The notes under the pieces: model-generated
Told to the model about the DNA's origin: nothing
The model's database searches: none
The model's input: the letters and a program-made list of their open reading frames with translations, nothing else
DNA from: Candidatus Kaistella beijingensis
GTDB lineage: Bacteria; Bacteroidota; Bacteroidia; Flavobacteriales; Weeksellaceae
Reading direction: 5' to 3'
NCBI RefSeq assembly: GCF_020084865.1
Contig: NZ_CP071953.1
Coordinates: forward strand, 62,001 to 126,000
DNA length: 64,000 nt
Position numbers and translations under genes: made by a program
Part shown: positions 11,560 to 34,819 of the stretch, piece after piece
How the letters are laid out: each line of letters begins with the position of its first letter
Position numbering within the stretch: position 1 is the first letter of the stretch

Positions 11560-12966
11560 ATGAAAATTTTCAACCTTTCCATGGAATGTTATCCTGTCGC
11601 AAAAGTCGGTGGACTTGCCGATGTAGTGGGAGCATTGCCAAAATATCTCAACAAAATCGATGGAGTAGAAGCAAGCGTGATTATGCCGTGGTACAACAAA
11701 CCTTTCGTGCACGACCACAGTTTTGAAATCGTTTTCGACGGTTGGATTCACCAAAGTCACCATGCTTTTCAAGTTCAGGTGATGAAGGAAAGAGGTAAAA
11801 CGCTTGGTTTCGATTTGTATTTGGTGAAAATTCCCGGACTTCTCGACCGAGATAATCCGTATGGATATTGGGATGAAAGTCAACAGTTTCTCGCTTTTCA
11901 ACACGGTGTTTTGCATTGGTTGACTGCCATGAAAATTCGTCCCGATGTCCTTCATTGCCACGATTATCACACCGGTTTGGTTCCGTTTATGATTGAAAAT
12001 TGCCCGGAATTTAGTTTCTTGAAGGGCGTGAAAACCATCGGAACCATTCACAATGGTGAATATCAAGGTCAGATGAAATGGGACATGCTGAATTATTTTC
12101 CGTGGTTTAGAGGAGATAAAGTGGGACTTTTGGATTGGGATGGATACATCAATCCTTTGGCGACGATGCTGAAATGTTGTCACGCTTTCAATGCGGTTTC
12201 CGAAGGTTATTTGCAGGAACTTTTCCAAAGTTTAAAAGGTCTTGAATCGCTTGTTCAACAGGAACATTCAAAAGCTTACGGAATTATCAACGGTATCGAT
12301 ACCGAAGTTTGGAATCCCGAAACCGACGCTTTCCTCGACTTTAATTTTGGTAAAAAAAATGCGCTCGAAGGAAAGTGGAAAAACAAAAAAGAACTTTGCG
12401 AAGAATACGGTCTAAATCCCGATTTGCCGCTCTTCAGTTTCATCGGAAGATTTGCGGTTGAAAAAGGCGCAGATTTACTTCCCGAAATCGTGTGGAAAAG
12501 CATTCAGCAAACGTATGGCGCCTTAAACATCATGATTTTGGGTTCCGGTGAAAAACACGTGGAACATCAGTTGAGCGAATTGAGTTACAGCTACTCGAAC
12601 TTTGCTTTGGATTTGGGTTACAAGGAATATCTTTCCCACAAAATTTATGCGTCGTCTGATTTCCTTTTGATGCCTTCAAGAGTGGAACCGTGCGGACTGA
12701 ACCAAATGTACGCAATGCGTTACGGAACCGTTCCCGTTGTGCGTTACACCGGTGGATTGCGCGACACGGTACAAGATATTTCCACCGGCGGAAGCGGAAT
12801 TAATTTTGGAAGCGCCACTGCGGAAGATGCGGTTCATGCGATGCATCGTGCGCTACACATTTACCATGAGAATGGTTTGATGGATTCTTTGGTACACTCC
12901 AACATGAATTATGATTTTTCTTGGGAGAAATCGGCGGAGAAATATCTGGAGTTGTACGAGAAATAG
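11560..12966 (+). CDS. glgA: Glycogen synthase
   Basis: 468-residue GT5 glycosyltransferase that extends alpha-1,4-glucan from ADP-glucose (or UDP-glucose). The N-terminal KVGGLADVVGALP loop (residues 15-27) binds the sugar nucleotide. The C-terminal domain shows FIGRFAVEKGADLL and PSRVEPCGLNQMYAMRYG, the nucleotide-sugar site. Cotranscription with glgB is likely. The last 36 codons with the stop (12857-12966) are duplicated at 13819-13928, on the far side of the higBA module. The leader 11519-11556 is a low-complexity CTCGTAACTC tract. Confidence 0.95.
   Translation: MKIFNLSMECYPVAKVGGLADVVGALPKYLNKIDGVEASVIMPWYNKPFVHDHSFEIVFDGWIHQSHHAFQVQVMKERGKTLGFDLYLVKIPGLLDRDNPYGYWDESQQFLAFQHGVLHWLTAMKIRPDVLHCHDYHTGLVPFMIENCPEFSFLKGVKTIGTIHNGEYQGQMKWDMLNYFPWFRGDKVGLLDWDGYINPLATMLKCCHAFNAVSEGYLQELFQSLKGLESLVQQEHSKAYGIINGIDTEVWNPETDAFLDFNFGKKNALEGKWKNKKELCEEYGLNPDLPLFSFIGRFAVEKGADLLPEIVWKSIQQTYGALNIMILGSGEKHVEHQLSELSYSYSNFALDLGYKEYLSHKIYASSDFLLMPSRVEPCGLNQMYAMRYGTVPVVRYTGGLRDTVQDISTGGSGINFGSATAEDAVHAMHRALHIYHENGLMDSLVHSNMNYDFSWEKSAEKYLELYEK
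12857..12966 (+). repeat. Direct repeat, left copy: functional 3' end of glgA
   Basis: These 110 bases are repeated at 13819-13928 with nine mismatches. The first 64 bases (12857-12920) are identical in both copies; the mismatches fall in the last 46 and are mostly synonymous third-position changes, ending ELYEK-stop here and ELYGR-stop in the right copy. The two copies bracket higBA. Confidence 0.93.
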
Positions 12967-13039
12967 GAGATTTTCTACACGGTAAATATTTCCAGGATTT
13001 ATTTCACATTAACTCGGAAATTATTATTTACAAAGTATT

Positions 13040-13396
13040 TTAGTAGGATTGAATTAAAACTTCAGTAGGAATTTTTAACTTGTCATGCAGATTCCTAATC
13101 ATTTCTAAAGACAGTTTCCTTTTCTTGTTCAAAATTTCACTTGCTCTACTTTTTAATCCAATCACCGTTGCCAAATCATTTTGAGAATAGTCCAATTGCT
13201 CCATTCTGAATTTAATCGCTTCAATAGGGTCGGGTAAATTTATAGGAAAGAATTCATTTTCATAATTGTCAATCAAAATTCCCAAAATTTCAAGTTCATC
13301 ACCTTCTTTGGTTCCTTTTTTTGCATCAAAAATTACCTCAAGTCTTTCTAATGCTTGATTGTAGTCTTTTTCGGTTTTTATAGGTTTGATTTTCAT
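13040..13396 (-). CDS. higA: HigA-type antitoxin, HTH XRE family
   Basis: 118 residues from MKIKPIKTEK. This start lies 4 bases after the higB stop; a longer frame to 13447 would overlap the toxin and is unlikely. Residues about 62-115 (MEQLDYSQNDLATVIGLKSR ... EMIRNLHDKLKIP) form a Cro/CI-type helix-turn-helix. It neutralises HigB and represses its own operon by family analogy. The toxin gene comes first, as is usual for HigBA. The whole module lies between two copies of the glgA 3' end. Confidence 0.88.
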   Translation of the reverse strand: MKIKPIKTEKDYNQALERLEVIFDAKKGTKEGDELEILGILIDNYENEFFPINLPDPIEAIKFRMEQLDYSQNDLATVIGLKSRASEILNKKRKLSLEMIRNLHDKLKIPTEVLIQSY

Positions 13397-13400
13397 TTTT

Positions 13401-13694
13401 TTAAATTTCGTTAGCATCAATTTTGTCATACTCACCATGAGTTCCAATAAATCGAATCCAAACCATTTGATATTCGTAATTAATTTTTACAATTAGTCTG
13501 TAATTATTTCCCTTAATATTGAAGCAAATTCTGTTATTGTTAAGGATACTTGCACTTGGATATTCCGATTTTATTTCATTAGGATTTTTCCATTTTGCCT
13601 TACTTACTTCCTTGAACCACGCTTTAAGTTGCTGTTCACAATCAGAATGTTTTTCCCAAAACCCCCGTAATATTTTCTTTGCTATAACTCGCAA
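13401..13694 (-). CDS. higB: HigB-type toxin, ribosome-dependent mRNA interferase
   Basis: 97 residues from a TTG start (MRVIAKKILRGFWEKHSDCE), the usual HigB beginning. Another TTG at 13712 would add six residues; no ATG is available. The sequence ASILNNNRICFNIKGNNYRL followed by YQMVWIRFIGTHGEYDKI is the conserved core of the HigB_toxin family (RelE-like fold), which cuts mRNA on the ribosome. It is followed after 4 bases by higA. Confidence 0.87.
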   Translation of the reverse strand: MRVIAKKILRGFWEKHSDCEQQLKAWFKEVSKAKWKNPNEIKSEYPSASILNNNRICFNIKGNNYRLIVKINYEYQMVWIRFIGTHGEYDKIDANEI

Positions 13695-13818
13695 TCCAAT
13701 AATTTTAAGCAAATATAATACAAAATTCCCAAAACGGGAAATTTTATTTGAATATTTCAGTTTAAAGATTTTAAACGTTAAAATTTATAAACACTTAATG
13801 CAATTCACTAGGGATTAA

Positions 13819-13928
13819 ACATTTACCATGAGAATGGTTTGATGGATTCTTTGGTACACTCCAACATGAATTATGATTTTTCCTGGGAGAAATCTGCGGA
13901 GAAGTATTTGGAGTTGTATGGGAGGTAA
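13819..13928 (+). repeat. Direct repeat, right copy: orphan 3' end of glgA
   Basis: Translates in the glgA frame as IYHENGLMDSLVHSNMNYDF and ends ELYGR-stop, but has no start or upstream glgA sequence. The homology begins abruptly at 13819. It is the relic of a second glgA terminus, and the module 12967-13818 lies between the two copies. No integrase, transposase or terminal inverted repeat was seen. Confidence 0.93.
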
Positions 13929-14066: not shown

Positions 14067-15053
14067 ATGTTGGTTCCGAAGATTAATAAAACTCAAATTT
14101 TTCAACTATTTTTATTGGCGGCTTTTGCTGCTTTCGTTATTCAGTGCAAAAAGGAAAATCCTGTTTCGGAAGTGATCAAAGAAACCATTAATCCTAATTC
14201 AGATTCTACAAAAGTGGCGGAGCAAAATTCCATTCAACAGGAAGTTCCGCAAAAAACTAATAGTACTTACACCGCTTTTATCTTTCCCAAAAAGAAAAGA
14301 GATTCTGCGATGGCTGCTTTCAACAAACAGTTTTCGGAGGAAGAACGTTATACGATTTTGGCTTTAAACCGACTCGATTCTAAAAATAAATGGAGAGCCG
14401 ACACACTCGCAATTCCCAATAAAATCGACAATACTTTAATGTCGTACACGCCGTTTCCAACTTATGTGGACAAATTGAAAGACGTGAAGAAAATCGTTTT
14501 TTTCTCGTATCCAATTCAGGCATATTCTGTTTATGAAAACGGGAAACTCATTAAATGGGGACCAACAAGCATGGGAAAAAAAAACGCGCAAACCAAACGC
14601 GGATTAATGCACGCCAACTGGAAGAAAGAACTCGCCATTTCCACCGTGGACAGCGAATGGAAACTGCCTTTCAACGTGAACGTTCACAATACTTTGGGAA
14701 TCGGGTGGCATCAGTATGATTTGCCGGGATTTCCGGCGTCGCATTCCTGTTTGAGGTTGTTGATGGATGACGCAAAATTCATGTACGGTTGGGTCGATAC
14801 GTGGGTTTTGAACAAAGGCGGTGCAACGGTAAAAGCGCACGGAACACCGGTCATCGTTTTCGGCGACTACAAATGGGGCGGGAAAAAACCTTGGAAAAAT
14901 TTAATTGACGATCCGCATTCCAACGATATTTCGGTGGAGGAACTGAACGGAATCATTGAACCTGAACTTCCGAAAATTATGGAGGAACAGAAAAATAGAG
15001 AACAGGTCATTTCCGAAACTGCTGCAAAATCGCAAGAAGTTCCGGCTGCCTAA
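14067..15053 (+). CDS. L,D-transpeptidase (YkuD-type) lipoprotein
   Basis: 328 residues. The N-terminus has a hydrophobic segment and a lipobox-like FVIQC (Cys27), so it is probably a lipoprotein. Residues about 140-270 form a YkuD domain: His215 in GIGWHQYD and Ser225-His226-Ser227-Cys228-Leu-Arg230, the catalytic cysteine motif. Position 227 is Ser where most members have Gly (SHGC). These enzymes make 3-3 cross-links in peptidoglycan or attach proteins to it. The gene lies just after the orphan glgA end and would originally have followed glgA. A strong terminator ends it. Confidence 0.88.
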   Translation: MLVPKINKTQIFQLFLLAAFAAFVIQCKKENPVSEVIKETINPNSDSTKVAEQNSIQQEVPQKTNSTYTAFIFPKKKRDSAMAAFNKQFSEEERYTILALNRLDSKNKWRADTLAIPNKIDNTLMSYTPFPTYVDKLKDVKKIVFFSYPIQAYSVYENGKLIKWGPTSMGKKNAQTKRGLMHANWKKELAISTVDSEWKLPFNVNVHNTLGIGWHQYDLPGFPASHSCLRLLMDDAKFMYGWVDTWVLNKGGATVKAHGTPVIVFGDYKWGGKKPWKNLIDDPHSNDISVEELNGIIEPELPKIMEEQKNREQVISETAAKSQEVPAA

Positions 15054-29674: not shown

Positions 29675-30487
29675 ATGATTAAGAAAAATAAAGAAATTTG
29701 GAAGGAGTATCCTTTAAATTTGGGATTTCCAACTGATTTTAGAATTGAGTTTTCAAATTTGGGTAGAATGAAGACGTTTTCTAGACTTGCTCCAAAAGGA
29801 AGTATTATTAAGGGTTCGTTACAAGGCGGTTTTCCCATTTTCAGAACTACATTTACGGATGAACTCAAACCTAAAGATGCCGAAAAACTTCAAGAACTCG
29901 ATAAAGAAATTGCAGAACTTAATGCCGAAATTAAAAACTTTGGATTAAAATCACCTATTGAGAATAAATCCGAAAACTTGCGCGATAAACTAGATGATTT
30001 AAAGAACAGAAGAGCTGAACTCGTTAAGACAAGGTCAAAACTTAATACAAAGTTTAGAAAGAAAGTTTCAAAATATGTAGCGATTTTGGTTCATAAAGCG
30101 GTTGCGGAATTATTTATAGGAAAACCTTTAGATGAGTCTAGAAAGTTTGTAATCCACCACGATTTCGATAAGTTAAATAATAACGTGGAAAATTTAGGAT
30201 GGGCAACTCAGGAAGAATTAACCGAACGCCAAATGAAACATCCGAAAGTCATTCTGAACCAGTTCAAAAAGCAATTCGAAGATAAAAAACCGAATGTAAG
30301 AAGTACCAAACTCTCGGAAAACGACGTACTTTTCATCAAATCAAAATTGGGAAAAAAAGGAGTGACGATGAAGAAATTGGCGCATCAGTTTGGGGTTTCA
30401 GAAATGCAGATTCACCGCATCAAAACGGGAGAAAACTGGAGCCACGTAAAAACAGTGAGTGAACTAAAAGCAGAAATGCAAAAATAA
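29675..30487 (+). CDS. NUMOD4/HNH nuclease-like protein with coiled-coil insert and C-terminal HTH
   Basis: 270 residues. Residues about 8-60 (FRIEFSNLGRMKTFSRLAPK ... LQGGFPIFR) resemble the NUMOD4 motif of homing endonucleases. Residues 65-130 are a charged coiled coil (KLQELDKEIAELNAEIKN). Residues 130-175 carry VHKAVAELFIGKPL and VIHHDFDKLNNNVENLGWAT, an HNH_3-type motif with His-His-Asp and Asn retained. The end (KGVTMKKLAHQFGVSEMQIH) is a helix-turn-helix. It may be a DNA-binding or nicking protein that has become a resident gene; the biological role is unknown. It is not adjacent to an intron or intein. Confidence 0.75.
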   Translation: MIKKNKEIWKEYPLNLGFPTDFRIEFSNLGRMKTFSRLAPKGSIIKGSLQGGFPIFRTTFTDELKPKDAEKLQELDKEIAELNAEIKNFGLKSPIENKSENLRDKLDDLKNRRAELVKTRSKLNTKFRKKVSKYVAILVHKAVAELFIGKPLDESRKFVIHHDFDKLNNNVENLGWATQEELTERQMKHPKVILNQFKKQFEDKKPNVRSTKLSENDVLFIKSKLGKKGVTMKKLAHQFGVSEMQIHRIKTGENWSHVKTVSELKAEMQK

Positions 30488-32242: not shown

Positions 32243-33034
32243 ATGAAATTTAACGATATTGATTTCAACAAATGGAAAGAAGAAGACATCAATGTTGATA
32301 GTCTTTGGATTTATAATGAACGTGAAAAATCGGGAAAACATAAAAATCACTATCATGGAAATTTCATCCCACAAATTCCGAAACAATTAATAAAACGGTT
32401 TACAAAAAAAGGTGATATTGTATTTGAACCTTTTATGGGAAGCGGAACAACACTTTTTGAGTGCGAAAATTTAGAAAGGAAATATATTGGTTTTGACATT
32501 AATTCTGAGATTATTGAGTATGTTAATAAAAATATGGAGGATTCTGATTCTTCAAAATATTTCATCACAGAAAATGATTCCACAAATGGAAATCAGTCTG
32601 CAGAAAATCTAAATTTTGGTCTTGGAAAGTTTGGTAAGCAGAAATTTCAATTGGCAATTTTGCATCCTCCATATTGGGATATTATTAAATTTTCAAATAA
32701 CGAAAAGGATTTGTCTAATGCAAAAACATTGGAAGAATTTTTATCTTTAATGAAAACCTCGATTCAAATTTCATATGATTTTTTGGAAAAAGAGAGGTAT
32801 TTTGCAATCGTAATTGGCGATGCTTATAAAAACAAGGAAATACTGCCATTGAGTTTTTATATGTTGCATCTTGTGAAGAAAAATTTTGATGTTTTGCTAA
32901 AAGGAATTATTATAAAAAATATTGAAGGAAATCGCGGGAAGATTGGTGCAAATAATATTTGGAAATATAGGGCGATGAAAAGTGATTATTATATTTTCAA
33001 ACACGAATATATTTTGGTTTTTAAAAAGCAATAA
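32243..33034 (+). CDS. Site-specific DNA methyltransferase (N4-C or N6-A, permuted order)
   Basis: 263 residues. The AdoMet loop FEPFMGSGTTLFEC (61-74) comes before the catalytic HPPYWD (141-146), so motif I precedes motif IV. HPPYW replaces the DPPY/SPPY tetrad; the trailing Trp is common in N4-cytosine enzymes, so m4C is somewhat favoured. There is no promoter of its own in the five bases after the glycosyltransferase stop. The stop overlaps the next start (TAATG), so translation is probably coupled to the nuclease-like gene. Confidence 0.85.
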   Translation: MKFNDIDFNKWKEEDINVDSLWIYNEREKSGKHKNHYHGNFIPQIPKQLIKRFTKKGDIVFEPFMGSGTTLFECENLERKYIGFDINSEIIEYVNKNMEDSDSSKYFITENDSTNGNQSAENLNFGLGKFGKQKFQLAILHPPYWDIIKFSNNEKDLSNAKTLEEFLSLMKTSIQISYDFLEKERYFAIVIGDAYKNKEILPLSFYMLHLVKKNFDVLLKGIIIKNIEGNRGKIGANNIWKYRAMKSDYYIFKHEYILVFKKQ

Positions 33035-34152
33035 TGGCAACACATATTTTTACTGTTAATGAAAAAACTTTTAAAATTCATTTAAATTACATGTTTGCTG
33101 GAACAGGTAAAGATGGATCAGCACATCAATCGGGTGCATTGGCAGATATCTCTGGAATTAGAAAGGGTGATAATGTTTGTTTTTACGTGATGAATAAGGG
33201 TTTTTTTGGTTTTTTTAAAGTTAAAGATAGTCCATTTTATGAAGGAGTAGAAAATCAATATTTACATGAAGAATTAGGCAAGAATCTAACTTATAGAGTT
33301 TTAATTGAACCATATAAAGTTTTTGAAAAAGCCAAATCTGAATGGGATGTAATGGAAAATCCAGATTTCATTAAAGATCATTCAATTTATAATATGCAAT
33401 GGGGGTGGATTTTCAAGAAACTTAATGCTAATAGAGGTTGTTTATCTATAGATAGCTATGAATCTATGTTACTAGAAAACATAATAGAGCAAGAAAACAG
33501 AATTCTTGAAAATGTCAGTAATTATAATTATGAAGATGGAATAATAAAACGTAATGAAAAAAAAATTTATGAAGGTATTACAAATAGAAAAATTAGAAAT
33601 TTCCCCAATATTATCAAAATTGAAGAAGACTTAAGAATTTTATTTACTAGTGAGGGAAATAATAATGACCTTCTTAATATTGTTTTAGAGCCACAGCAAA
33701 ATGGAAAAATAAACTTTATTTCAAATGAAGTAATATGCTCATTTAGTGAGCGTAAACTTGATTTAGTTTTAGGAACCGAAAAACAATTTTGTTTATTAAT
33801 TGAACTTAAAAATAAATTTGTATTTGATAAAAGCATTTATAATCAGCTGAAAGAATATTCAAGGTGGATTTCTGCCTACAAAATGCATTATGAAAAAATA
33901 ATTCCAATTCTAATAATTAGGGAGGCAAACATTTTACCTATAAAAAAAAGAGGTAAGTATTTTAAATATTTATCTTTTCAAGATAAAGATCTAGGTATTT
34001 TAAGTGATTGGTATCAAAATTTGTCTGAAGAGATTAAGCAAGCAAAATTGCAATTGAAAGCTGAAAATATAAGTAAATTAGATAATTTGAAAGTCTATAT
34101 TTTCGAAACAGATACCGATAATAAACTTGTTAATTTCAAATTAATAGAATAA
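33034..34152 (+). CDS. EVE/PUA-like domain plus PD-(D/E)XK nuclease, putative restriction enzyme
   Basis: 372 residues. Residues 1-130 (HLNYMFAGTGKDGSAHQSGA ... GIRKGDNVCFYVMNKGFFGF) look like an EVE/ASCH-type PUA-fold domain, a class that reads modified bases. After a linker, Asp243 (RKLDLVLG), Glu257-x-Lys259 (IELKNK) and Gln271...Tyr275 give the RecB-family PD-(D/E)XK pattern. It overlaps the preceding methyltransferase by one base. Likely role: cutting DNA depending on methylation status. The EVE assignment is by pattern only. The codons are very AT-rich compared with housekeeping neighbours. Confidence 0.7.
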   Translation: MATHIFTVNEKTFKIHLNYMFAGTGKDGSAHQSGALADISGIRKGDNVCFYVMNKGFFGFFKVKDSPFYEGVENQYLHEELGKNLTYRVLIEPYKVFEKAKSEWDVMENPDFIKDHSIYNMQWGWIFKKLNANRGCLSIDSYESMLLENIIEQENRILENVSNYNYEDGIIKRNEKKIYEGITNRKIRNFPNIIKIEEDLRILFTSEGNNNDLLNIVLEPQQNGKINFISNEVICSFSERKLDLVLGTEKQFCLLIELKNKFVFDKSIYNQLKEYSRWISAYKMHYEKIIPILIIREANILPIKKRGKYFKYLSFQDKDLGILSDWYQNLSEEIKQAKLQLKAENISKLDNLKVYIFETDTDNKLVNFKLIE

Positions 34153-34204
34153 TCATTTATATTGACTAAAATGATTTTTTAAAATGTAAAAAATTTAAAC
34201 TGAA

Positions 34205-34819
34205 ATGATTAGTAAAAATAAATTATTCTTGGATTTGGCTAAACCTGATGAAAAAGGTTTTTCGAGATGGGTCGATGTTTCAGAGTTTATTGGTGAATAT
34301 TCGAGACTTGTATTTGGAAATGGTGCGGATTGGGCAAGAAGCGATGGAACTTTGGCAAAAGCCTATATTATAGAATTTGATAAAACTATTTCAGCTGGTA
34401 ATAGAATTGATAGAGTTAGATTAAATGGTATTAACATAAAAGAAGCAGGAACACAGCAAATCCGAACTGATATTCGAAATGTAATAATAAAACAGAATTG
34501 TGTTATACTGGGAACTTCACACAAAACAAATAAAGAAATTGAGGTAGATCATAAAAATGGTCGTAAAAACGACTTACGAGTTATGAATCTAAAAACTCAA
34601 GTGTTGAGTGATTTTCAACCTTTAAGTAAAGCAGCAAATGATGCTAAAAGACAGGCATGTAAGGTTTGTAAGAAAACAGATCAGAGATTTGATGCAAAAA
34701 AACTGGGATATAATTATTCTGTAATAGAAGGTGAACTTTTATACGATCACGAGTTAGGTTGTGAAGGCTGTTTTTGGTATGATCCGATAGAGTTTAGAAA
34801 AAAATTGTTTAAAAAATAA
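34205..34819 (+). CDS. HNH-type type II restriction endonuclease (probable)
   Basis: 204 residues. The core EVDHKNGRKNDLRVMNLKTQ (113-132) carries the Asp-His of a beta-beta-alpha-metal nuclease, followed by SKAANDAKRQ with Asn145. Two pairs, CKVC (152-155) and CEGC (186-189), probably hold a structural zinc. The ending GCEGCFWYDP is shared by several type II enzymes of this class. It precedes a controller protein and a DPPY methyltransferase, the classic R-C-M grouping. The recognition sequence is unknown. Confidence 0.72.
   Translation: MISKNKLFLDLAKPDEKGFSRWVDVSEFIGEYSRLVFGNGADWARSDGTLAKAYIIEFDKTISAGNRIDRVRLNGINIKEAGTQQIRTDIRNVIIKQNCVILGTSHKTNKEIEVDHKNGRKNDLRVMNLKTQVLSDFQPLSKAANDAKRQACKVCKKTDQRFDAKKLGYNYSVIEGELLYDHELGCEGCFWYDPIEFRKKLFKK

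What the first reader, a model, noticed from the sequence alone, without database searches (positions are those of the whole stretch)
12857..13928. HigBA toxin-antitoxin module bracketed by a duplicated glgA 3' end
The last 110 bases of glgA occur twice, on either side of higBA. The first 64 bases are identical, and nine differences, mostly synonymous, lie in the last 46. The synonymous pattern means the second copy evolved as a real glgA end in another lineage and was brought in with the module. So the unit is [glgA end]-higBA-[glgA end], leaving the target gene intact, as islands do at tRNA 3' ends, but with no integrase or transposase and a protein gene as target. The abrupt 64-bp identity could be an attachment or crossover site. 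This may be an undescribed way in which small toxin-antitoxin cassettes move.
Basis: partly seen in the sequence, partly recalled or inferred. Interest (0 to 1): 0.82.

Follow-up and report, generated by a model that had tools for sequence, protein, structure and literature searches.

The report
Gene-tail scar beside toxin-antitoxin genes
A small toxin-antitoxin gene pair sits between a glycogen-synthase gene and a second, slightly different copy of that gene's tail, and the same arrangement beside other genes in related bacteria suggests a scar left when such pairs are swapped between strains by half-homologous recombination, not by an enzyme of their own.

Summary
The end of glgA (12857-12966) recurs at 13819-13928 across higBA: 101 of 110 identical, the first 64 without a difference, nine differences in the last 46. 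The right copy also continues about 22 nt upstream as a diverged glgA tail (0 of 6000 random stretches fit as well).

higBA is an insertion: none of 34 other genus genomes examined has a second tail; in 18 of 34 the L,D-transpeptidase gene follows glgA directly.

The arrangement recurs: a lysS tail beyond higBA (G032), a gene end beyond a higBA/PIN cluster (G074), a thioesterase tail beyond parDE (G013). Bracketing repeats are enriched at toxin-antitoxin loci, though most such loci have none.

G013 shows a route. Its left part resembles the toxin-antitoxin allele of G009; from the tail copy onward it resembles the empty allele of G012 and G001. There the tail belongs to the empty allele, and the joint is illegitimate on that side.

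I read the window as the same kind of scar. Its 64-nt core is unexplained and which copy is native is unresolved. A moving [tail]-higBA-[tail] unit and an attachment site are not supported. New variant of a known kind.

The parts
11560..12966 (+). glgA (glycogen synthase), intact; its last 110 nt are the left copy
   Evidence: Pfam Glyco_transf_5 E 2e-52; groups with G032/G010/G028/G021 in the tree
12857..12966 (+). left copy of the glgA tail
   Evidence: direct repeat, exact differences; 12921-12963 fits the window's own clade, without excluding several other placements
13040..13396 (-). higA antitoxin, 118 aa
   Evidence: Pfam HTH_3; PADLOC PD-Lambda-2_B, matching profile positions 1-120 of 402
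13401..13712 (-). higB toxin, 103 aa (TTG start as listed)
   Evidence: Pfam HigB_toxin E 3e-35; PADLOC PD-Lambda-2_A
13726..13740 (.). palindrome TTCCCAAAACGGGAA upstream of higB, probable HigA operator
   Evidence: sequence; recognisable by eye at 21 of 21 homologous loci, with base changes in several; operator role inferred
13039..13757 (-). compact higBA unit: the part shared with homologues elsewhere in the genus
   Evidence: seven genus genomes match about 13020/13039-13740/13757, at other loci; flanks mostly unrelated
13797..13818 (+). upstream, diverged part of the right glgA tail (two indels, one in-frame stop)
   Evidence: 0 of 6000 random 60-mers align as well to 35 glgA genes
13819..13882 (+). 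64-nt block identical to 12857-12920
13883..13928 (+). end of the right copy, nine differences from 12921-12966, reads ...WEKSAEKYLELYGR*
14067..15053 (+). L,D-transpeptidase gene, the right neighbour at the empty site
   Evidence: Pfam YkuD; directly downstream of glgA in 18 of 34 genus genomes

Best explanation
A recombination scar. A toxin-antitoxin allele of an intergenic region ([gene]-TA) meets an empty allele of the same region ([gene]-downstream) from another lineage. On the gene side the two DNAs recombine by homology, with the neighbouring housekeeping gene as anchor. On the other side the end of the TA module is joined illegitimately to a point inside the tail of the other allele's gene. 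The product is [complete gene]-TA-[truncated tail of the other gene copy]-normal downstream DNA: the gene is unharmed, the TA pair is added, and a short, synonymously diverged tail remains as a scar. TA pairs may be kept because cells that lose one again are penalised. SHOWN: the structure, the empty sites, recurrence at other genes, and, for the G013 thioesterase/parDE case, relatives of both parental alleles. INFERRED: that the window locus arose in the same way, that entry was by DNA uptake or another transfer of chromosomal DNA, and that the 64-nt identical block is a later gene-conversion patch between the two copies or the place of a crossover.
For: Empty site in relatives. The right copy diverged like a real glgA end on both sides of the block. 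G013: its left part matches G009 (thioesterase-parDE; query 1-1082 at 90%), and from the tail copy onward it matches the contiguous empty site of G012 and G001 (query 1092-1911 at 86-87%); over the roughly 300 nt from the tail copy through the intergenic DNA the identity is 95.7% to G012 and 94.3% to G001 but 72.6%, with gaps, to G009. G009 has no tail copy beyond parE (score 16, against 66 in G013). G013's thioesterase gene is 91-94% identical to G002, G030, G006, G005 and G012 but 78% to its tree neighbours G033 and G019, so the gene itself was exchanged. Different TA pairs occupy one site: the thioesterase-sigma gap holds higBA in G002, G008, G018, G034 (coordinates) and parDE in G013, G009. 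lysS tail copy beyond higBA in G032 (score 64; the other 20 lysS gaps at most 32). Enrichment: 4 of 60 higB-family loci against 0 of 3282 random placements have a bracketing repeat of 60 bits or more within 1500 nt; flank-to-flank score 45 or more in 5 of 58 against 2 of 3306 mismatched flank pairs. Precedents: additions by homology-facilitated illegitimate recombination proposed for effector-immunity arrays (PMC5361080, passages); gene-end duplications of 109-950 bp from single crossovers (PMC3240628, passages).
Against: For the window neither parental allele has been seen: no genome with glgA-higBA without the tail, and no close relative (nearest glgA about 81% identical at DNA level). The 64-nt identity needs an extra step. 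Which tail is native cannot be said: the left end fits the window's clade, the 22-nt upstream right piece does not, both tails share GAG TTG that 0 of 34 other genomes have, and conversion and crossover models have equal likelihood (difference 0.04). Not every bracketing repeat at a TA locus is a gene tail: L143, L154, L360, L375 and L391 are intergenic or partly dispersed repeats. Of the four gene tails only those of the window and G013 pass 60 bits themselves; the lysS tail has 56 bits, and G074's passing repeat is a different one. The 1.27-Mb control does hold four repeat pairs of 60 bits or more in 4 of 117 loci, too close together to bracket a 670-nt module, and two control loci show duplicated terminators around non-TA DNA (L076, L039). 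Most TA loci show no scar (53 of 58). Against control genes alone the excess is modest (9 of 107 TA loci, 0 of 54; p 0.03).
Confidence: 0.55

Rival explanations
1. Single-crossover (Campbell-type) addition: a small circle carrying higBA and a shortened foreign glgA end recombined once with the chromosomal glgA, within the 64-nt block. The left end after the block and the right part before it would then come from the circle.
For: Explains one identical block with divergence on both sides in a single step; leaves an intact gene; precedent in PMC3240628 (56 of 60 clones gave a PCR product diagnostic of a gene-end duplication, 14 sequenced; passages). Likelihood equal to the conversion model, and slightly better (1.8 log units) if the 22-nt piece is left out.
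Against: The left end (12921-12963) fits the window's own clade (G010 best) and the upstream right piece fits G026 and rejects G010, G028, G032 and the window, although this model makes both one donor; that piece is only 22 nt. No circle or plasmid form found: nearest plasmid-borne HigB about 62% identical, no close relative in viral contigs.
Confidence: 0.2
2. Insertion with a long target duplication, as proposed for restriction-modification systems: higBA inserted and duplicated about 110-135 bp of the recipient's own glgA end; the copies diverged later and the core was homogenised.
For: Duplications of the order of 100 bp are reported for restriction-modification units (PMC3874152 and PMC3031569, passages); recurrence at several genes.
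Against: The right copy shows mostly synonymous change, including upstream, as if it had evolved in a working gene; in G013 the two tails belong to two different alleles, one still joined to its own downstream DNA.
Confidence: 0.12
3. One reading: a self-contained [glgA end]-higBA-[glgA end] unit moving by site-specific recombination at the 64-nt block.
For: Abrupt 64-nt identity; architecture like islands at tRNA ends; target gene left intact.
Against: Unit not found elsewhere (0 of 34 genus genomes; 0 of 80 loci); no recombinase among 28 window proteins scanned; other tails lack such a block.
Confidence: 0.05
4. An old local duplication of the glgA end unrelated to higBA, which later landed between the copies by chance.
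For: The two copies share the codons GAG TTG near the end, which 0 of 34 other genomes have there.
Against: Gene tails or other repeats bracket TA pairs more often than control places or control genes (0 of 3282 placements; 0 of 54 control-gene loci); no relative examined has the duplication without higBA.
Confidence: 0.05

Closest known systems
Homology-facilitated illegitimate recombination (natural transformation; proposed for Vibrio T6SS effector-immunity arrays, PMC5361080)
   Same: One homologous anchor, one non-homologous joint, new genes added next to a conserved gene, relics of the replaced allele left behind.
   Different: Here the cargo is a type II TA pair beside housekeeping genes and the relic is the 3' tail of the anchor gene; the window copy has an added 64-nt identical block.
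Insertion with long target duplication of restriction-modification systems (Nobusato 2000 and Furuta 2010, cited in PMC3874152; originals not read)
   Same: A selfish gene unit without a known transposase, bracketed by direct repeats of about 100 bp.
   Different: Here the two repeats look like alleles of different lineages, not copies of one target sequence.
Single-crossover integration giving gene-end duplications (lacZ, PMC3240628)
   Same: Gene-end duplication of 109-950 bp flanking added DNA.
   Different: That is a laboratory plasmid; no circle is known here.
Integrative islands at 3' ends of tRNA or protein genes (recalled)
   Same: Target gene kept intact, 3' end duplicated.
   Different: No integrase found, no common core, cargo of only two genes.

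Membership tests
HigBA type II toxin-antitoxin | HigB toxin fold family | tested here: met
   Pfam HigB_toxin E 3.2e-35, profile positions 1-74 of 74
HigBA type II toxin-antitoxin | HTH antitoxin downstream of the toxin gene, operator upstream | tested here: met
   HTH_3 in HigA; order higB then higA; palindrome recognisable across 21 loci; binding not tested
HigBA type II toxin-antitoxin | toxicity and neutralisation | not testable with these tools
   needs expression tests
PD-Lambda-2 defence system | third gene and full-length B protein (make-up recalled) | tested here: not met
   HigA covers only 1-120 of 402 positions of the B model; only higA and higB lie between the two tails
Homology-facilitated illegitimate recombination scar | both parental alleles identifiable, with one non-homologous joint | tested here: inconclusive
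   met, through relatives of both parents, at the G013 thioesterase/parDE locus; for the window neither parent is in the collection
Homology-facilitated illegitimate recombination scar | short microhomology at the illegitimate joint | not tested
   needs the unrecombined parents at base resolution
Insertion with long target duplication | both copies derive from the recipient's one target sequence | tested here: inconclusive
   upstream part of the right copy rejects the window's clade, but is 22 nt; in G013 not met
Integrase-driven island | integrase or other recombinase gene nearby | tested here: not met
   none among 28 window proteins scanned with Pfam; one farther away or acting in trans is not excluded
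Integrase-driven island | same unit at other sites or in other genomes | tested here: not met
   0 of 34 genus genomes and 0 of 80 loci
Single-crossover addition | one crossover block with exchanged arms | tested here: inconclusive
   likelihood equal to conversion, difference 0.04

The most novel reading that the evidence does not exclude
Toxin-antitoxin pairs in Weeksellaceae spread between species by using the neighbouring housekeeping gene as a homology arm and leave gene-tail scars; a TA pair that is kept by post-segregational killing biases which half-illegitimate recombinants survive, so a chain of such scars records serial TA swapping at fixed sites (glgA, lysS, thioesterase), with no mobility enzyme of their own.
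Probability: 0.3. Interest if true: 0.75.

Novelty: new variant of a known kind. Interest (0 to 1): 0.55.

Why it matters
How stand-alone chromosomal toxin-antitoxin pairs move without a transposon or integrase is an open question (my judgement). A gene-tail scar is a readable record of the event: it names the anchor gene, the direction, and in a good case both parental alleles. If general, it makes transfer of small selfish gene pairs countable from genome sequences and testable by transformation in the laboratory.

Tried and rejected
Whole-glgA replacement by a foreign allele with the right copy as native relic: glgA and glgB group the window with G010, G028 and G032 (support 99 and 98), and the transpeptidase gene with G010 and G028 (support 89; not found near glgA in G032), so a wholly foreign glgA is not supported, though a donor within the clade is not excluded; windows along glgA suggest a mosaic first third.

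glgA-transpeptidase gaps of 1.3-3 kb in 11 of 34 genomes as further cassettes: they hold ordinary genes (named by eye) and no tail copy.

Bracketing repeats at L143 and L154 as gene tails: not gene tails. The full L143 repeat occurs only at that locus in G032, but part of it is dispersed; L154's has a third partial copy nearby. L252 was dropped from the census: a different pair without a detected higA, 44-45% HigB identity, repeat probably a local duplication. L153 and L351 repeats are terminator hairpins and ambiguous. L226 (107 bits) lies beyond 1500 nt and was left out of the comparison with the control; with 2000-nt flanks and L252 kept the count is 6 of 61.

Integron sites in G074 and G010 arrays: considered by eye only, consensus recalled, no clear fit; not tested with a tool. 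Phage or plasmid carriage of close HigB: not found (reaches close relatives only).

Corrections: the second Fisher test used 6 of 60; the right count with 1500-nt flanks is 4 of 60 (p 9e-8; placements overlap, so they are not independent). Of the 57 control-gene loci, three (L205, L273, L284) were higBA loci brought in by the same searches; without them it is 0 of 54, p 0.03 against 9 of 107 TA loci. Two of the 54 (L268, L269) are lysS loci with higBA beside them.

Literature: gene-tail scars beside TA pairs were not seen in the listings of searches; only open-licence papers are held.
Full report
WHAT IS THERE. glgA (11560-12966) is intact. Its last 110 nt (12857-12966) recur at 13819-13928, beyond higA (13040-13396, -) and higB (13401-13712, -). 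The copies agree at 101 of 110 positions: 64 without a difference, then nine differences in 46. Five differing codons are synonymous, one is stop for stop, and the two last residues change. An even spread of nine differences would give this clustering with probability 0.0004. The repeat's E-value is 1e-43.

THE RIGHT COPY IS LONGER THAN REPORTED. Upstream of the 64-nt block the right copy reads AAT GCA ATT CAC (T)AGG G-A TTA A, close to glgA of G026 and far from this genome's own glgA. Anchored extension against 35 glgA genes scores 14; 0 of 6000 random 60-mers, from the window and from other fetched loci, reach it (maximum 13). So the identical block lies between two diverged pieces.

THE MODULE IS AN INSERTION. 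0 of 80 named glgA loci (up to 5 kb downstream where held) and 0 of 34 further genus genomes have a second tail. In 18 of 34 the transpeptidase gene follows glgA within 300 nt; in 11 of 34 ordinary genes lie between; in 5 of 34 it was not found nearby. One genus genome (G015) gave no match. Seven genus genomes have a full-length higBA match of about window 13020/13039-13740/13757, at other loci; several more have weaker or partial ones. Twenty homologous loci share the genes and the palindrome upstream of higB, and otherwise fall into several unrelated contexts, a few of them shared between genomes.

WHICH COPY IS NATIVE? glgA and glgB place the window with G010, G028 and G032 (support 99 and 98), the transpeptidase gene with G010 and G028 (support 89). 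The left end (12921-12963) fits that clade best (G010), rejects G026 and G017, but leaves several other placements open. The right end is unresolved: the window is not rejected, G010 and G028 are. The 22-nt upstream piece rejects the clade, but is short and aligned with indels. Both tails share GAG TTG near the end, found there in 0 of 34 other genomes, which hints at a donor close to the window's lineage or a native right end. A model in which the right copy is wholly of one donor, and one in which the arms were exchanged by a crossover, have equal likelihood (difference 0.04; 1.8 in favour of crossover without the 22 nt). I cannot decide.

RECURRENCE. One search listed 62 other higB-family places in 296 family genomes; 60 stretches were fetched (G116 was not, and one place is a second piece of a fetched locus). 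With the window this is 61; one (L252) was dropped as a different pair. Within 1500 nt, 4 of 60 have a bracketing direct repeat of 60 bits or more (window, L143, L150, L154) against 0 of 3282 placements in 1.27 Mb of control sequence, mostly glgA neighbourhoods; that control does hold four closer-set repeat pairs of 60 bits or more, in 4 of 117 loci, and none of 100. In a second test, left against right flank scores 45 or more in 5 of 58 loci, against 2 of 3306 mismatched flank pairs, both of which were lysS tails. For other TA families in the genus, 3 of 28 usable ParE loci and 2 of 22 usable PIN loci have repeats of 60 bits or more; control genes 0 of 54. In the flank test the counts at 45 or more are 2 of 27 (mismatched pairs 3 of 702) and 2 of 22 (0 of 462). 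Not all are gene tails: L143, L154, L360, L375 and L391 are intergenic or partly dispersed repeats, L153 and L351 terminators.

GENE-TAIL CASES: 3 of 60 higB-family loci, 1 of 28 ParE loci, 0 of 22 PIN loci. (Names lysS, gyrB, thioesterase, sigma factor and small zinc-binding-like gene were recognised by eye, not by a family search.) (1) Window: glgA, higBA. (2) G032: a second higBA between lysS and gyrB is followed by a diverged lysS tail; score 64, the other 20 lysS gaps at most 32, including G010 and G028, which carry higBA beside lysS without a tail; 56 bits. (3) G074: a small gene's last codons plus terminator recur beyond a cluster higBA-orphan-PIN pair, 89% over 79 nt. In G046 the two neighbours lie 72 nt apart, an empty site, but that gene's end does not resemble the repeat, so its origin is open. 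(4) G013: thioesterase gene, parDE, then an in-frame tail ...LATFRGTVYKIEKKVTDL*.

THE INFORMATIVE CASE. In G013 the thioesterase-parDE part matches G009 (90% over query 1-1082), which has no tail copy there (score 16 against 66). From the tail copy on, G013 matches the contiguous empty site of G012 and G001 (86-87% over query 1092-1911); over about 300 nt next to the joint it is 95.7% identical to G012, 94.3% to G001 and 72.6%, with gaps, to G009. The tail copy is thus the end of another allele's gene, still joined to its own downstream DNA. These genomes are relatives of the parents, not the parents. The thioesterase gene of G013 is 91-94% identical to G002, G030, G006, G005 and G012, but 78% to G033 and G019, its neighbours in the glgA, glgB and transpeptidase trees: the gene was exchanged too. 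Different TA pairs hold this one site: higBA in G002, G008, G018 and G034 (coordinates), parDE in G013 and G009. This is what recombination through shared neighbouring genes would produce, with one homologous and one illegitimate joint.

INTERPRETATION. I extend that scheme to the window by analogy. The tail copies start close to the module edges: about 85 nt in the window, about 20 nt in G013, about 8 nt in G032. The 64-nt block is extra: either a conversion patch between the two copies or the site of a single crossover; longest identical runs in the other tails are 11, 12 and 30 nt. Published precedents: effector-immunity arrays explained by homology-facilitated illegitimate recombination (PMC5361080, passages); gene-end duplications from single crossovers in E. 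coli (PMC3240628, passages); target duplications of the order of 100 bp for restriction-modification systems (PMC3874152 and PMC3031569, passages). PMC3784515 (passages) shows transformation making duplications by another route.

NO MOBILITY GENE SEEN. Pfam scans of 28 window proteins (26 of the 29 ORFs of 150 aa or more that start before 34.9 kb, plus higA and higB) found no integrase or transposase; the 25 such ORFs farther right were not scanned. An HNH-domain protein lies at 29675-30487. HigB has no close relative in IMG/VR, at best about 62% on plasmids and 43% in phages.

VERDICT. A real feature, correctly observed. It is better read as a recombination scar around a swapped TA pair than as a self-moving unit. 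The recurrence of gene-tail scars beside TA pairs was not seen in the listings of my searches.

Noticed in passing
L150 (G074), L336, L337, L338: Two conserved flanks of about 115 nt (D2 upstream, D1 downstream) frame several different TA or orphan genes in one genome (higBA, a PIN pair, parDE-like pairs, an orphan); in some places only one flank was found. This looks like a cassette frame of unknown mechanism.
   Followed up: partly
L144 (G010 contig 48) 154-3361: higBA lies in an array of small orphan genes separated by repeats of 86-200 nt (86-91% identical); the 200-nt pair folds into a very strong hairpin (about -100 kcal/mol).
   Followed up: partly
L235 and L296-L315 (lysS-gyrB gap): The gap between lysS and gyrB is an insertion hot spot: 211-244 nt in 12 of 21 genomes, elsewhere holding higBA, two unknown genes (window genome) or ordinary genes.
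   Followed up: partly
L395-L424 (thioesterase-sigma gap): Hot spot holding higBA in four genomes and parDE in two; a dispersed repeat of about 100 nt with many copies in the genus also lies there.
   Followed up: partly
L076 7881-8340 and L039 8421-9476: A duplicated terminator downstream of a glgC-like gene brackets 0.3 kb in one genome and a small outer-membrane-like gene in another: tail duplication around non-TA DNA.
   Followed up: partly
window 32243-34819: Probable restriction-modification locus: DNA methylase (N6_N4_Mtase), an unknown 372-aa protein and an ICEA-family protein.
   Followed up: no
window 11680-12040: Part of the first third of the window's glgA is closer to G003, G005, G006 and G009 than to its own clade, suggesting a mosaic gene.
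   Followed up: no
window 13040-13712: Both proteins match PADLOC models of the PD-Lambda-2 phage-defence system, although only as a two-gene pair.
   Followed up: partly
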